This document shows, in pieces, positions 32,891 through 42,381 of a DNA stretch of 64,000 nucleotides. The stretch's first letter is position 1. Each line of letters begins with the position of its first letter. The DNA lies in the NCBI RefSeq assembly GCF_002252445.1, contig NZ_NNRJ01000051.1, positions 248,001 through 312,000 on the forward strand, given 5' to 3'. The notes beneath the pieces were generated by a model that was not told the DNA's origin, made no database searches, and saw only the letters and a program-made list of their open reading frames with translations. This DNA comes from Brucella thiophenivorans. Lineage in GTDB: Bacteria; Pseudomonadota; Alphaproteobacteria; Rhizobiales; Rhizobiaceae. The translations under genes and the position numbers were made by a program.

Positions 32891-33002
32891 CACTTACCGC
32901 TTGCGCCTCCTCCCATTGCGCGCGGTAAGTGTTCCCCTCTGGAGGTTTGCCTTTATGGCACCTTCATAACTTAGCCGGACTTTTTAGTCCGGCTCTTTTT
33001 TT
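32891..33002 (+). ncRNA. anti-Shine-Dalgarno small RNA (alpha-r14 / cuckoo-RNA type)
   Basis: A 112-base transcript is predicted. A 5' hairpin with arms CACTTACCGC (32891-32900) and GCGGTAAGTG (32922-32931) and a short inner GCGC pair presents CCTCCTCCC (32906-32914) in its loop. A smaller CCTC/GAGG fold follows near 32935, then a strong terminator. The exposed CCTCCTCCC motif is the hallmark of the alpha-r14 family of Rhizobiales and the CcsR RNAs of Rhodobacter. It is predicted to pair with ribosome-binding sites of target mRNAs. No open reading frame is present inside. Confidence 0.75.
32973..33002 (+). terminator. rho-independent terminator of the small RNA
   Basis: AGCCGGACT-TTTT-AGTCCGGCT, nine perfect pairs, followed by C and seven T. 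Confidence 0.93.
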
Positions 33003-37579: not shown

Positions 37580-37750
37580 CCCTCTGTCTCAGGCCTGAGA
37601 GACTCGCATAGCTATAAAGCTATACTTACACCTTCGGCGCGGAGTTTCCCCCGACTTTCCAGAGTTGCCTTACCCATCTGCGGTTCATGATACCTGAGAG
37701 ATTTCGGGCGATTTCCCCTTCGGTGGCCAGCTTGCGCCAGCTCTCTCCCG
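37580..37750 (-). ncRNA. tandem glycine riboswitch
   Basis: Read on the minus strand, two aptamers follow one another. The first contains GGGAGAG, ACCGAAGGGG, TCTCTCAGG and CGCAGATGGG; the second contains CAACTCTGG, CGCCGAAGG, TCTCTCAGG and GACAGAGGGG. These are the conserved blocks of the gcvT RNA. It precedes gcvTHP and should switch on the operon when glycine is abundant. The second aptamer carries an extended TATAGCTTTATAGCTA hairpin. Confidence 0.93.
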
Positions 37751-37903
37751 CAGACAAACAGTGACAGAACAATCTCGTAAAACGCAATGCTCCACCACAC
37801 GACAAGATTCGTTTATCTTAATCCGCTTTGGGAGTCATGCAGAATTGTTGTCTTCAACCGACAATTACCCGGAATTTTGCGACAAAATTTTTATGCGCAA
37901 CAG

Positions 37904-37919
37904 TCACCAAATATGGTGA
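37904..37919. promoter_or_regulatory. inverted repeat TCACCA-N4-TGGTGA
   Basis: Perfect 6-base arms, further framed by CAACAG (37898) and CTGTTG (37924). It lies between the divergent gcvT leader and the DUF1127 gene and could serve either as an operator. The binding protein is unknown. Confidence 0.4.
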
Positions 37920-37940
37920 TTTGTCTGTTGCGAACAGAGA

Positions 37941-37952
37941 TTGTGATCACAA
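37941..37952. promoter_or_regulatory. palindrome TTGTGATCACAA
   Basis: Perfect 12-base palindrome about 140 bases before the DUF1127 start. It looks like a compact operator, but it is not a standard CRP/FNR site because the half-sites have no spacer. Confidence 0.4.
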
Positions 37953-38021
37953 AATGACCAAGCTGCGCAAAAGGCGTGCAATCGACAGGCTGAATTGCAC
38001 AGCAGCTATGCAAATCTGTCT

Positions 38022-38050
38022 CTGCAAGTTTCAAAGCAACCAGCCTATAT
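38022..38050 (+). promoter_or_regulatory. possible RpoH-like promoter of the DUF1127/small-RNA locus
   Basis: CTGCAAG, 15 bases, CCTATAT, ending 44 bases before the DUF1127 start codon. It resembles the heat-shock pattern more weakly than the promoter at 32857. Similar loci in Rhodobacter are RpoH-dependent, which supports but does not prove this reading. Confidence 0.35.
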
Positions 38051-38093
38051 GCTGTTTGCAACAAAGAGATTTGATTTTTACTAGGTGAGAGAA

Positions 38094-38240
38094 ATGAACC
38101 TGATCCGCTCGTACAACAACTGGCGCCGTTACCGCAACACAGTCAACGAACTGAGCCGCCTGAGCCAGCGTGAACTCAACGACCTTGGCATCATGCCTTC
38201 GGAAATTCCGTTCGTAGCACGCAAGGCTGCTGCTCGCTAA
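38094..38240 (+). CDS. DUF1127 small protein (CcaF1-like)
   Basis: 48-residue basic protein beginning MNLIRSYNNWRRYRNTVNEL and containing the DUF1127 core LSQRELNDLGI. AGGTGAGAG lies before the ATG. DUF1127 proteins are arginine-rich; CcaF1 (RSP_6037) of Rhodobacter sphaeroides is an RNA-binding protein that acts in maturation of the CcsR small RNAs encoded just downstream. Here too four CTCCC-loop hairpins follow within 200 bases, and a weak hairpin AAAGGC-TTCT-GCCTTT (38250-38265) separates protein and RNA parts. Confidence 0.9.
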   Translation: MNLIRSYNNWRRYRNTVNELSRLSQRELNDLGIMPSEIPFVARKAAAR

Positions 38241-38270
38241 GAGCACCAAAAAGGCTTCTGCCTTTATCTG

Positions 38271-38297
38271 GACCGCCTCCCAAAAAATAGTGCGGTC
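38271..38297 (+). ncRNA. CCTCCC-loop hairpin 1 of the small-RNA array
   Basis: Arms GACCGC and GCGGTC (six pairs). The loop starts with CTCCC, giving the motif CCTCCC at 38276-38281. Shortest member of the array; its loop motif is truncated relative to hairpins 2 and 3. Confidence 0.6.
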
Positions 38298-38316
38298 TTT
38301 ACAGTTTCCAGAGTTT

Positions 38317-38353
38317 TCACCGGGGTGTTCCCTCCTCCCATTTTCCTCGGTGA
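38317..38353 (+). ncRNA. CCTCCTCCC-loop hairpin 2 of the small-RNA array
   Basis: Arms TCACCG and CGGTGA, with possible extra GG/CC pairs inside, enclose a loop holding CCTCCTCCC at 38331-38339. Corresponds in layout to a CcsR-type anti-Shine-Dalgarno RNA. Confidence 0.7.
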
Positions 38354-38357
38354 TATA

Positions 38358-38389
38358 AAGACCGGCATTCCTCCTCCCAAGCCGGTCTT
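38358..38389 (+). ncRNA. CCTCCTCCC-loop hairpin 3 of the small-RNA array
   Basis: Nine perfect pairs (AAGACCGGC with GCCGGTCTT) enclose a 14-base loop with CCTCCTCCC at 38370-38378. It is separated from hairpin 2 by only four bases, so maturation of individual RNAs would need cleavage. Confidence 0.75.
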
Positions 38390-38399
38390 ACCCTAAATG

Positions 38400-38436
38400 A
38401 CACCCGCCGCTCCTCCCGCGGTGGGTGTTATTTTTT
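38400..38436 (+). ncRNA. CTCCTCCC-loop hairpin 4, also the array terminator
   Basis: Arms ACACCC-G-CCGC and GCGG-T-GGGTGT enclose the loop TCCTCCC, and the hairpin is followed by TA and six T. It therefore serves both as the fourth anti-Shine-Dalgarno hairpin and as the rho-independent terminator of the locus. The convergent MFS gene ends 8 bases further on. Confidence 0.75.
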
Positions 38437-38443
38437 GTGCATT

Positions 38444-39667
38444 TCACTGCGCAGAAAGCACTGCTTTTTCTCGGCCCAGACGATCAATCAGTATCGAACC
38501 AGCAAAGACTAGCAATCCTGCCAAAGCCAGGAAACCGCCGACCGTTCCGGTTGAAGTCCAGCCATAGCCCCAGGCGATTGCAAGTCCGCCGAGCCATGCG
38601 CCCAACGCATTCGCAAGATTAAGCGCAGAATGGTTCAAAGCGGCGGCGAGTGTTTGCGCATCAGCCGCAACATCCATCAGACGGGTTTGCAGAGCGGGAA
38701 CGAGCGCAAAACCACCCCCTACCAGAAGCACACTTAAGAATGCAGTTGCTGGATGCTGCATCAACGTGGGGAATGCAAACATCACGGCCATATCATAAAG
38801 CAGCACCCCGCCAATCGTCCCCATAACAGAGCGGTCCGTGAGTTTAGAGCCGACAATATTGCCAAGCACCATCCCAAGACCGAACATCACGAAGACAATC
38901 GGCATCCATTTCGCATCGATAAGCGAGACTTGTGTCACTGTTGCCGCGACATAGGAGAATACCGAAAACAATCCACCAGTGCCGACAGCACCAATCGCAA
39001 GCGTGAGAAGCACCTGCTTACGCCGCAAAGCTCCAAGCTCGCGCAAAGGTGATGCGCCCTCTTCCGCTGGTCGTTTGGGGACAAAAATCATGACCATAAC
39101 CATGGTCAGAATAGCAATCAGACCAACTGCCGCAAACATAGCGCGCCATCCGGCAATCTGGCCGAGCCATGTTGCAAGTGGGGTACCGACAAGTGTTGCA
39201 ACAGTCAGGCCGGACATAACACGACCGACAGCCTGTGCGCGCTTTCCTGGCTCAGCTAACGAGGCTGCAACCAGCGAAGCAACACCAAAATATGCACCAT
39301 GCGGAAAACCCGCGATAAAGCGCATGAAATAAAGACTGGTGTAATTCTGCATAAATGCACTGGCGAGATTGCCAAATGCAAACATCGCCATGAAAAGAAA
39401 GAGCAGCTTTCGACGATCAAGCTTTGCACCAATAATGGCAAGAACGGGCGCGCCTATCAAAACGCCCAGTGCATAAGAACTGATCAGGTGACCTGCCGAT
39501 GGCATATCGACATGAAGGTCGCGTGCAATATCCGGCAGAAGTGCCATAATTGCGAATTCTCCGGTGCCAATACCGAAGCCGCCGAGAGCGAGTGCCAGCT
39601 CCGCCAGTCGCTCAGGCGAGCGTGACGACGTTTTCGGCGATAAAGCCGAAGTCTGATTCTTTGACAT
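38444..39667 (-). CDS. MFS transporter, DHA1 family (drug/arabinose-efflux-like)
   Basis: About 407 residues with 12 predicted membrane segments. It resembles the AraJ/YdhP/chloramphenicol-efflux branch: GGFGIGTGEFAIMALLPDIA in segment 1, ALGVLIGAPVLAII in segment 2 and LDRRKLLF in the loop between segments 2 and 3. An in-frame TTG at 39724 is also open, but the ATG at 39667 (MSKNQTSALS) gives a normal N terminus. It is 99 bases downstream of the RidA-like gene in the same direction and may belong to that transcript. The substrate is unknown. Confidence 0.82.
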   Translation of the reverse strand: MSKNQTSALSPKTSSRSPERLAELALALGGFGIGTGEFAIMALLPDIARDLHVDMPSAGHLISSYALGVLIGAPVLAIIGAKLDRRKLLFLFMAMFAFGNLASAFMQNYTSLYFMRFIAGFPHGAYFGVASLVAASLAEPGKRAQAVGRVMSGLTVATLVGTPLATWLGQIAGWRAMFAAVGLIAILTMVMVMIFVPKRPAEEGASPLRELGALRRKQVLLTLAIGAVGTGGLFSVFSYVAATVTQVSLIDAKWMPIVFVMFGLGMVLGNIVGSKLTDRSVMGTIGGVLLYDMAVMFAFPTLMQHPATAFLSVLLVGGGFALVPALQTRLMDVAADAQTLAAALNHSALNLANALGAWLGGLAIAWGYGWTSTGTVGGFLALAGLLVFAGSILIDRLGREKAVLSAQ

Positions 39668-41511: not shown

Positions 41512-41527
41512 TTGACCGATCGGTCAG
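41512..41527. promoter_or_regulatory. RutR-like TetR-family operator
   Basis: TTGACCGATCGGTCAG contains the perfect 14-base palindrome TGACCGATCGGTCA and closely resembles the E. coli RutR site TTGACC-N4-GGTCAA. It lies between the divergent reductase gene (115 bases) and the creatininase gene (54 bases). A RutR-like regulator is encoded at the end of the creatininase operon. Direct binding is inferred. Confidence 0.7.
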
Positions 41528-41537
41528 ATTGTTTAGT

Positions 41538-41572
41538 AGGAGACTCTAACTCCTCCCCCATTTCTTTAGGAG
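41538..41572 (+). promoter_or_regulatory. leader with alternative AGGAG/CTCCT pairings before the creatininase gene
   Basis: An AGGAG (41538-41542), a CTCCT within CTCCTCCCCC (41550-41559) and the ribosome-binding AGGAG (41568-41572) follow one another. The central CTCCT could pair with either AGGAG, so the ribosome-binding site can be hidden or freed. This is visible as sequence complementarity only. Confidence 0.35.
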
Positions 41573-41580
41573 CGGCCATC

Positions 41581-42381
41581 GTGAAACGATATTGGTCAGA
41601 TTATACGAGCGAAGCGTTCTCACGCCTTGAGCGCGATAAGATCTTGGCAATTCTGCCTGTTGGCGCTATCGAGCAGCACGGTCCTCATCTGCCGGTTGCC
41701 GTCGATGCAGCCATCGTTGACGGAATGGTCAAGGAAACCATTGCCCGCCTGCCTGATGAAAGCCATGCACTGTTTCTGCCGACACAGGCCATCGGCAAGA
41801 GCAATGAGCATAGCCGCTACCCCGGATCTCTGACTTTTTCGGCAGAAACAATCATTCGCATGTGGTACGAAATTGGTGCCTGCGTTGCAGCCAGCGGCGT
41901 GCGCAAGATGGTACTTTTGAACAGCCATGGCGGCCAGATCAGTATTATGGATATTGTCGCGCGCGAGCTGCGCATCCGGCACAACATGATGGTGGTGAGC
42001 GTTAACTGGTTTGCACTTGGTATGCCCGAGGGCGTTTATAGCGAACACGATCTCAAGCATGGAATTCATGCTGGCGACATGGAAACATCTGTCATGCTTG
42101 AACTACACCCCGATCTTGTTGATATGTCGAAAGCACAAAATTTCCATACACTTACGGAAGTTTTTGAAAGCGATTTCAAGCATCTTTCATTGAGCGGTGG
42201 CGCAAAACCGGCATGGCAGATGCAGGATATAAATCCTTCTGGCGCGGCGGGTAATGCAACGCTTGCCACCGCTGAAAAGGGACGCAAAACCATCGATTTT
42301 GCGGCAGAACGGCTGGTCGAAGTGCTTGCCGAGATCGAACGAGCGCCGCTCTCGTGGCTTGACAACCAACCAGCCTGGTAA
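41581..42381 (+). CDS. creatininase-family amidohydrolase
   Basis: 266 residues from a GTG start preceded by TTTAGGAG; the frame opens earlier at 41512. Creatininase-fold metal motifs are intact: GAIEQHGPHLPVAVDA with the Glu and His ligands (about 27-42), NSHGGQ (about 117-122) and HAGDMETS (about 161-168). The family includes creatininase and the formamide hydrolase ArfB, so ring opening or amide hydrolysis of a small N-containing compound is likely; true creatininase activity is only one option because no creatinase gene is nearby. First gene of a six-gene catabolic and import operon. Confidence 0.87.
   Translation: MKRYWSDYTSEAFSRLERDKILAILPVGAIEQHGPHLPVAVDAAIVDGMVKETIARLPDESHALFLPTQAIGKSNEHSRYPGSLTFSAETIIRMWYEIGACVAASGVRKMVLLNSHGGQISIMDIVARELRIRHNMMVVSVNWFALGMPEGVYSEHDLKHGIHAGDMETSVMLELHPDLVDMSKAQNFHTLTEVFESDFKHLSLSGGAKPAWQMQDINPSGAAGNATLATAEKGRKTIDFAAERLVEVLAEIERAPLSWLDNQPAW

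What the first reader, a model, noticed from the sequence alone, without database searches (positions are those of the whole stretch)
38094..38436. DUF1127 gene followed by four tandem anti-Shine-Dalgarno hairpins (CcsR-like locus)
Seen: a 48-codon DUF1127 gene, then four hairpins within 170 bases, each with CTCCC-type loop sequence (CCTCCC, CCTCCTCCC, CCTCCTCCC, CTCCTCCC); the fourth is also the terminator. Known: in Rhodobacter sphaeroides, DUF1127 protein CcaF1 and four CCUCCUCCC RNAs (CcsR1-4) form one stress-induced transcript. The same gene order, copy number and loop motif here suggests a conserved protein-plus-RNA module in Brucellaceae. The dual use of the last hairpin as terminator and as anti-SD RNA is notable.
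Basis: partly seen in the sequence, partly recalled or inferred. Interest (0 to 1): 0.78.

Follow-up and report, generated by a model that had tools for sequence, protein, structure and literature searches.

The report
Small-protein gene with built-in regulatory RNAs
This is a short bacterial gene for a small arginine-rich protein whose message ends in a row of hairpins of a known type, resembling small RNAs that block the ribosome-binding sites of other messages; the kind of locus is already known, and what may be new is which regulator seems to switch it on and how the gene may avoid its own RNAs.

Summary
38094-38240 encodes a 48-residue DUF1127 protein; 38312-38433 is a member of Rfam ar14 (RF02344, 85 bits, cut-off 58.8). 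Three hairpins carry CCTCCTCCC-type loops. The first of the claimed four (38270-38298) has a conserved stem but no conserved loop motif: of 23 aligned rows only the window has CTCCC there. The locus fails the CcsR1 model (23.8 of 65.3 bits), and "four = CcsR1-4" is no equivalence, since that model has two hairpins per RNA.

The linkage is very strong: 80 of 80 close DUF1127 relatives in named genomes have aSD hairpins behind them (74 have three or more). It was already named (CIN1 locus).

So part of the VtlR regulon probably yields anti-Shine-Dalgarno RNAs as well as proteins. As a group, array-linked DUF1127 genes have ribosome-binding sites that pair worse with the loops than unlinked paralogues (-4.4 against -6.9 kcal/mol), with clear exceptions. 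New member of a known kind, with a testable twist.

The parts
37998..38012 (+). VtlR/LsrB-type box CACAGCAGCTATGCA (12 of 15 to the published Brucella motif CAATGCAGCCATGCA); first base 96 before the start codon
   Evidence: In the window alone a 3-mismatch hit is not significant (5 found, 5.4 expected); the evidence is the fixed position in 54 of 80 relatives against 2 of 320 control windows
38045..38050 (+). -10 element CTATAT; predicted start of transcription about 38057
   Evidence: the six bases are invariant in the 28-row alignment of the window and 27 gcvT-linked relatives; same -10 as published for NfeR1 (PMC10746234, passage). Start site inferred
38083..38089 (+). Shine-Dalgarno AGGTGAG; pairs with the 16S tail at -8.3 and with a CCUCCUCCC loop at -5.8 kcal/mol
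   Evidence: not extreme by itself: 32 of 52 crudely called genes of the window pair with the loop at least as well
38094..38240 (+). DUF1127 gene, 48 residues, stop included
38250..38265 (+). small conserved hairpin behind the stop codon
   Evidence: helix 1 (97.7% of cells paired)
38270..38298 (+). hairpin 1: stem conserved, loop motif not conserved (degenerate module)
   Evidence: helix 2
38317..38353 (+). aSD hairpin 2, loop with CCCTCCTCCC
   Evidence: helix 3 (100% of cells paired); CTCCTCCC in 22 of 23 rows
38358..38389 (+). aSD hairpin 3, loop with CCTCCTCCC
   Evidence: helix 4; CTCCTCCC in 22 of 23 rows
38395..38436 (+). aSD hairpin 4 (stem 38395-38433) with CTCCTCCC, its first C paired in the minimum-energy fold, followed by a T-run: intrinsic terminator
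   Evidence: helix 5 (five pairs with changes on both sides); CTCCTCCC in 17 of 23 rows, CCTCCC in 23
38312..38433 (+). ar14 RNA (RF02344), hairpins 2 to 4
   Evidence: 85.3 bits, cut-off 58.8

Best explanation
One transcript of about 380 nt starts near 38057, activated by the LysR-type regulator VtlR (LsrB) bound at 37998-38012. Its 5' part is translated into a small arginine-rich DUF1127 protein. Its 3' untranslated part is cut off, probably by RNase E in the linkers between hairpins, and persists as an ar14-type RNA with three CCUCCUCCC loops that bind Shine-Dalgarno sequences (GGGAGGA) of other messages and block their translation. The DUF1127 message may partly escape its own RNA because its ribosome-binding site uses AGGUGA instead of GGAGG. 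Shown here: gene, hairpins, compensating changes, linkage, box, and weaker loop pairing of array-linked DUF1127 sites as a group. Inferred: VtlR binding at this copy, transcription, cleavage, targets, escape, any role of the protein in maturation.
For: ar14 above cut-off. Compensating changes: 11 of 42 pairs changed on both sides, 33 cells, each reached by 0 of 500 shuffles; slid structures pair 40.2-47.1% of cells against 99.1%. Linkage from the protein side: 80 of 80 loci with at least one aSD hairpin, 74 with three or more, against 27 of 956 control windows with any and none with three. Linkage from the RNA side in 30 chosen genomes: 44 of 101 ar14 matches lie within 600 bases downstream of a same-strand DUF1127 match, in 25 of 30 genomes; no opposite-strand pair within 1 kb. 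Box in 54 of 80, 2 of 320 controls. Own genome: the box (2 mismatches, reverse orientation) also precedes an ar15 RNA by 63 bases, beside a 301-residue LysR protein with HTH at 7-66, as published for VtlR next to abcR2 (PMC12595884, passages). Published: three DUF1127 genes fall about 17-, 50- and 100-fold without VtlR in B. melitensis (PMC12595884, section 23 read). Loop action on a Shine-Dalgarno site is shown for NfeR1 (PMC10746234, passages); RNase E in CcsR maturation (PMC8625941, passages). No sigma-70-type promoter match in 37700-38500, so none between gene and hairpins.
Against: No expression data for this locus were seen. The box in the window has three mismatches, and 26 of 80 relatives have four or five. 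One of the three boxed short DUF1127 genes of this genome has no array (C6:514324, L009), so VtlR control and arrays are separable. A. tumefaciens work assigns functions to the short DUF1127 proteins through PhoR, and heterologous proteins complement the mutant (PMC12501420, passages), so phenotypes need not come from the RNA; for Salmonella YjiS no RNA binding was found (same paper). In one search the number of further pair types barely exceeds the shuffles (32 against 29.2; 23 of 500 reach it), and the structure was derived from the same alignment. Escape: the window's site is unremarkable among 52 window genes, six of 80 array-linked relatives have AGGAG sites with strong loop pairing (-10.2 to -10.5), and the 12-hairpin genome G020 has a strong GGAGG site.
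Confidence: 0.72

Rival explanations
1. The hairpins are only a structured 3' end (terminator and exonuclease block) that stabilises the DUF1127 message; no separate small RNA acts in trans.
For: In the 80 loci the first aSD hairpin starts 7-146 bases behind the stop codon and in the window the last is a terminator. No promoter-like match was found between gene and hairpins.
Against: Stems vary while the loop motif stays: in the 23-row alignment CTCCTCCC is kept in 22, 22 and 17 rows in hairpins 2, 3 and 4. A stabiliser needs no loop sequence. (The 213 of 246 hairpins with the full motif are biased, because the finder needs a related motif to see a hairpin.) Stand-alone ar14 RNAs exist in the same genome, one with its own box (L001, L003), and NfeR1 acts in trans (PMC10746234, passages).
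Confidence: 0.12
2. The loops act in cis as an autoregulatory device that closes the DUF1127 ribosome-binding site when RNA is in excess.
For: Loops and site share one transcript. Six of 80 relatives have AGGAG sites that pair well with the loops.
Against: Array-linked DUF1127 genes pair worse with the loop than unlinked ones: -4.40 (33 genes) against -6.87 kcal/mol (29 genes), p 1.5e-4; +2.0 kcal/mol after allowing for 16S pairing, permutation p 1.5e-4.
Confidence: 0.06
3. The array is a 16S-tail mimic that competes with ribosomes for strong Shine-Dalgarno sites in general, a broad translation damper rather than a regulator of chosen targets.
For: The loop contains the CCUCC core of the 16S tail (tail recalled); arrays grow to 12 hairpins in G020, which suits dose more than specificity; 92 GGGAGGA-N3-9-ATG places in this genome against 6 for the reversed control (the pattern does not require a gene, one place is the antisense of this locus, and two overlap).
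Against: The loop CCUCCUCCC goes beyond 16S identity, so GGGAGGA sites should be preferred; NfeR1 has a defined target, ntrB (PMC10746234, passages).
Confidence: 0.25
4. It is a true CcsR locus with RpoH-driven stress induction as in Rhodobacter.
For: DUF1127 plus CCUCCUCCC hairpins in the same order (PMC10253847, passages).
Against: CcsR1 model 23.8 bits, cut-off 65.3; VtlR/LsrB-type box. No RpoH scan was run.
Confidence: 0.06

Closest known systems
ar14 family / NfeR1 (RF02344)
   Same: three hairpins with CCUCCUCCC loops, variable stems, last hairpin the terminator, CTATAT -10, LsrB-type box upstream (PMC10746234, passages)
   Different: NfeR1 has its own promoter just upstream; here the RNA is the 3' end of a DUF1127 message and a degenerate hairpin precedes it
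ccaF1-CcsR1-4 operon of Rhodobacter sphaeroides (RF02791)
   Same: small DUF1127 protein gene followed by aSD-loop RNAs and a terminator on one transcript (PMC10253847, PMC8625941, passages)
   Different: 71-residue protein, four RNAs, two hairpins in the CcsR1 model, RpoHI/RpoHII promoter; model score here below cut-off
cuckoo RNA family and CIN1 locus (Reinkensmeier and Giegerich 2015, not held; known through PMC10253847)
   Same: short DUF1127 gene with CcsR-like RNAs in alphaproteobacteria: this locus is one
   Different: in the passages seen there is no link to VtlR control or to the host ribosome-binding site; the original was not seen
VtlR-activated DUF1127 genes of Brucella (BAB1_0914, BAB2_0512, BAB2_0574) and atu1667
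   Same: short DUF1127 genes with the same motif upstream; this genome has three boxed short DUF1127 genes and a fourth without the box, as published for Brucella (PMC12595884, passages)
   Different: the passages seen treat the Brucella genes as protein genes; for atu1667 the authors leave open whether it makes a protein or a small RNA (PMC7486931, passage)
SmelA075 / SmelA099 (PMC3927594, section 2.7 read)
   Same: three and four hairpins with CCUCCUCCC loops, several copies per genome, stress-linked
   Different: described there as trans-encoded RNAs; DUF1127 does not occur in the main text

Membership tests
ar14 (RF02344) | covariance-model score at or above 58.8 bits | tested here: met
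   85.3 bits, whole model
ar14 (RF02344) | three hairpins with CCUCCUCCC-type loops | tested here: met
ar14 (RF02344) | independent trans-acting small RNA | not testable with these tools
   no expression data
CcsR (RF02791) | covariance-model score at or above 65.3 bits | tested here: not met
   23.8 bits
CcsR (RF02791) | RpoHI/RpoHII promoter | not tested
   no RpoH scan was run; only a sigma-70-type scan (no match) and footprinting
CIN1 locus (DUF1127 plus CcsR-like RNAs; definition from PMC10253847, passage) | short DUF1127 gene directly upstream of aSD hairpins on the same strand | tested here: met
   44 of 101 ar14 matches in 30 genomes
CIN1 locus (DUF1127 plus CcsR-like RNAs; definition from PMC10253847, passage) | co-transcription and processing of the RNAs | not testable with these tools
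   no promoter-like match between gene and hairpins is only consistent with it
VtlR regulon | motif CAATGCAGCCATGCA upstream | tested here: met
   12 of 15 in the window, not significant alone; conserved in position in 54 of 80 relatives
VtlR regulon | binding and activation by VtlR | not testable with these tools
   published for Brucella and Agrobacterium relatives only (passages)

The most novel reading that the evidence does not exclude
In Brucellaceae and their relatives the VtlR/LsrB regulon is at heart an anti-Shine-Dalgarno RNA regulon. AbcR2, stand-alone ar14 and the 3' ends of VtlR-activated DUF1127 messages are switched on together and silence GGGAGGA-type messages. Many host genes escape by using the other half of the 16S tail (GGUGA, 64 of 80 relatives) or a weak site: immunity of an mRNA to the small RNA in its own tail. 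The array-free third DUF1127 gene, with GGGAGGAAG in its leader (3 of 3 same-genus genomes looked at), would then be a target of its siblings. Effects ascribed to loss of these small proteins may be partly effects of lost RNAs.
Probability: 0.3. Interest if true: 0.62.

Novelty: new member of a known kind. Interest (0 to 1): 0.4.

Why it matters
DUF1127 proteins have two competing accounts, RNA binding (CcaF1) and binding to sensor kinases (YjiS with SsrA, Agrobacterium proteins with PhoR; PMC12501420, passages). In the 30 genomes compared, 23 of the 30 best-scoring DUF1127 matches carry ar14 RNAs just downstream, so deleting such a gene may remove two products. It also gives a simple way to ask how an mRNA avoids a small RNA cut from its own tail.

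Tried and rejected
CcsR membership was rejected on score. Counting four equal hairpins was rejected after alignment. A class-wide search with CcsR1 gave matches in 17 of 289 genomes, none over the cut-off; DUF1127-like frames were seen in three of these places (L213 with its overlapping copies L230-L232, L214, L219), and in L214 the two main motifs lie upstream of the gene. Cis autoregulation was disfavoured on pairing energies. The target search gave 92 places; 30 loci were opened and 10 proteins scanned (two periplasmic binding proteins, two acetyl-CoA-synthetase-like, one MFS, five others), with no control set, so no enrichment is claimed. The gcvT neighbourhood with its glycine riboswitch (27 of 80 loci) was considered as a clue to C1 metabolism, but the other 53 loci show no GcvT match in the flanks fetched, so it is not part of the unit. 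Four papers looked up by id are not held: the 2015 cuckoo paper, the 2018 B. abortus small-protein paper, the 2021 CcaF1 paper and the 2020 A. tumefaciens DUF1127 paper. A search for BAB2_0512, BAB1_0914, BAB2_0574 and Atu1667 found two papers; the passages read do not describe small RNAs in the 3' ends. That is no proof that it is not in print.

Full report
What is there. The DUF1127 gene is at 38094-38240. The stretch behind it folds far better than shuffles (z -8.4) and holds an ar14 RNA at 38312-38433. Three hairpins carry anti-Shine-Dalgarno loops and the last is the terminator. The 'first hairpin' at 38270-38298 is different in kind: its stem is conserved, with changes on both sides in two pairs, but CTCCC occurs there only in the window among 23 rows. 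The 23 rows are the window and 22 of the 27 loci that have a GcvT match in their flank. Left out were L084 and L112 (15 and 10 mismatches in 360 bases to a neighbour row or its relative) and three diverged loci: L086 (first stem disturbed), L148 (keeps a first stem; one aSD hairpin found) and L149 (no first hairpin; two aSD hairpins found). Leaving the diverged ones out favours the structure counts.

Is it more than chance. For the 42-pair structure 99.1% of cells pair, 11 pairs have a change on both sides, 0 of 500 shuffles reach either value, slid structures pair 40.2-47.1%; the count of further pair types is only slightly above the shuffles (23 of 500 reach it). The structure came from the same alignment. 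In hairpins 2, 3 and 4 CTCCTCCC stands in 22, 22 and 17 of 23 rows. From 584 stretches that matched the patterns, 536 encode a relative and the best 80 were kept; all 80 have at least one aSD hairpin within 330 bases downstream and 74 have three or more, while 956 control windows from the same loci gave 26 with one, one with two and none with three. Two limits: the five query proteins of A1 were all from array-linked genes, and the 80 are close relatives (Brucella, Falsochrobactrum, Pseudochrobactrum, Phyllobacterium and neighbours), so they are far from independent. A few fourth hairpins counted far downstream (L104, L126, L151) are probably accidental.

Distribution. ar14 is found in 146 of 151 genomes of the family, 137 over the cut-off. 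In 30 of these, picked by me and not at random, there are 101 ar14 matches (E 0.001) and 117 DUF1127 matches (E 1e-5). 44 of 101 ar14 matches lie within 600 bases downstream of a same-strand DUF1127 match, in 25 genomes; 34 of 117 DUF1127 matches are so linked: 23 of the 30 best-scoring, 10 of the next 30, 1 of the last 57. Several genomes have an ar14 a few hundred bases upstream of DUF1127 genes on the same strand. Arrays vary: from two hairpins found (motif-dependent finder) up to 12 in G020, where a three-hairpin unit is repeated four times (8 CTCCTCCC and 4 shortened loops). The number of hairpins is therefore not a conserved trait.

Own genome. Seven DUF1127 matches, six over the cut-off. 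Two short genes, the window's and C10:292182, have the box and an array; a third, C6:514324, has the box (3 mismatches) and no aSD motif in 330 bases downstream; a fourth, C46:120108, has neither (best box match 4 mismatches on the other strand). This resembles the published Brucella picture of three VtlR-dependent DUF1127 genes and a fourth without the motif (PMC12595884, passages and section 23). Of five ar14 matches four are over the cut-off; two of these stand alone (L001, L003), and L003 has a box 47-55 bases upstream. Of two ar15 RNAs one (C76) lies beside a 301-residue LysR protein and has a box; the other is in the window at 32892-33000. The name VtlR for that protein rests on size, domain limits and neighbourhood: among the 25 of 56 NCBIfam matches shown none is above its cut-off.

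Control region. The box is at a fixed distance: of 54 relatives with three mismatches or fewer, 53 have it 91-117 bases before the start codon and one at 131; controls (flanking windows, largely coding) 2 of 320; 26 of 80 have four or five mismatches. Genome-wide the motif at three mismatches occurs 282 times, the reversed pattern 44 times, so a single hit means little. CTATAT is invariant in 28 gcvT-linked rows.

Self-avoidance, a lead. Of 80 relatives 64 have GGTGA in the 20 bases before the start, 6 AGGAG (L105, L106, L109, L110, L114, L115), 10 neither. AGGTGA keeps 16S pairing (-8.3) and pairs with the loop at -5.8; 39 distinct sites average -5.27 against -7.22 for 52 crudely called window genes (p 0.005), but the window's own site is middling (32 of 52 genes pair at least as well), and the AGGAG sites pair strongly (-10.2 to -10.5). 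In the 30 genomes, 33 of 34 linked DUF1127 genes could be given a start: mean loop energy -4.40 against -6.87 for 29 of the 83 unlinked ones (mostly best-scoring), p 1.5e-4; 16S pairing -7.38 against -8.20, p 0.048. With 16S pairing as covariate the difference is +2.0 kcal/mol, t 4.0, permutation p 1.5e-4. In 10 genomes with both kinds fetched the linked gene pairs worse in 9, one of them by only 0.03, and better in G018; Wilcoxon p 0.047. Genes are related, start codons were chosen by rule, unlinked means no ar14 match, and a weak site could simply mean that the transcript is mainly an RNA precursor. G020, with 12 hairpins, contradicts (strong GGAGG, -9.9).

How it works. See best explanation. 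Transcription, cleavage and targets are carried over from NfeR1 (PMC10746234, passages) and CcsR (PMC8625941, PMC10253847, passages; Discussion of the latter read). In the main text of the Brucella small-RNA review PMC9751625 the words DUF1127, ar14, cuckoo and anti-Shine do not occur.

Verdict. A known kind of locus, correctly spotted, wrongly equated with CcsR and over-counted. The additions that may be new are the VtlR/LsrB box as a shared feature of DUF1127 arrays and, more weakly, the poor loop pairing of host sites.

Noticed in passing
window 32892-33000 (+): An ar15 (AbcR-type) RNA, 67.9 bits, about 5 kb from the locus beyond gcvP; the genome's other ar15 lies beside the VtlR-like LysR gene.
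   Followed up: partly
window 37671-37760 (-): Glycine riboswitch ahead of gcvT, divergent from the DUF1127 gene.
   Followed up: no
L153 (G020:C23) 668-1182: Twelve aSD hairpins in four repeats of three behind one DUF1127 gene; a similar array of about ten in L154.
   Followed up: partly
L009, L182, L192 leaders: The array-free boxed DUF1127 paralogue has GGGAGGAAG 29-58 bases before its start codon in all three same-genus genomes looked at, a fit for the aSD loops of its sibling genes.
   Followed up: partly
window 38250-38265: Conserved AAGGC...GCCTT hairpin behind the stop codon, in some relatives followed by TTCTTT; could be a weak terminator or the 3' end of the processed message.
   Followed up: no
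window 41550-41557: A further CTCCTCCC on the + strand near the start of the open frame 41512-42381, not examined.
   Followed up: no
L168-L171: ar14 RNAs lie a few hundred bases upstream of DUF1127 genes on the same strand in several genomes, so the two stay neighbours even when not on one message.
   Followed up: partly
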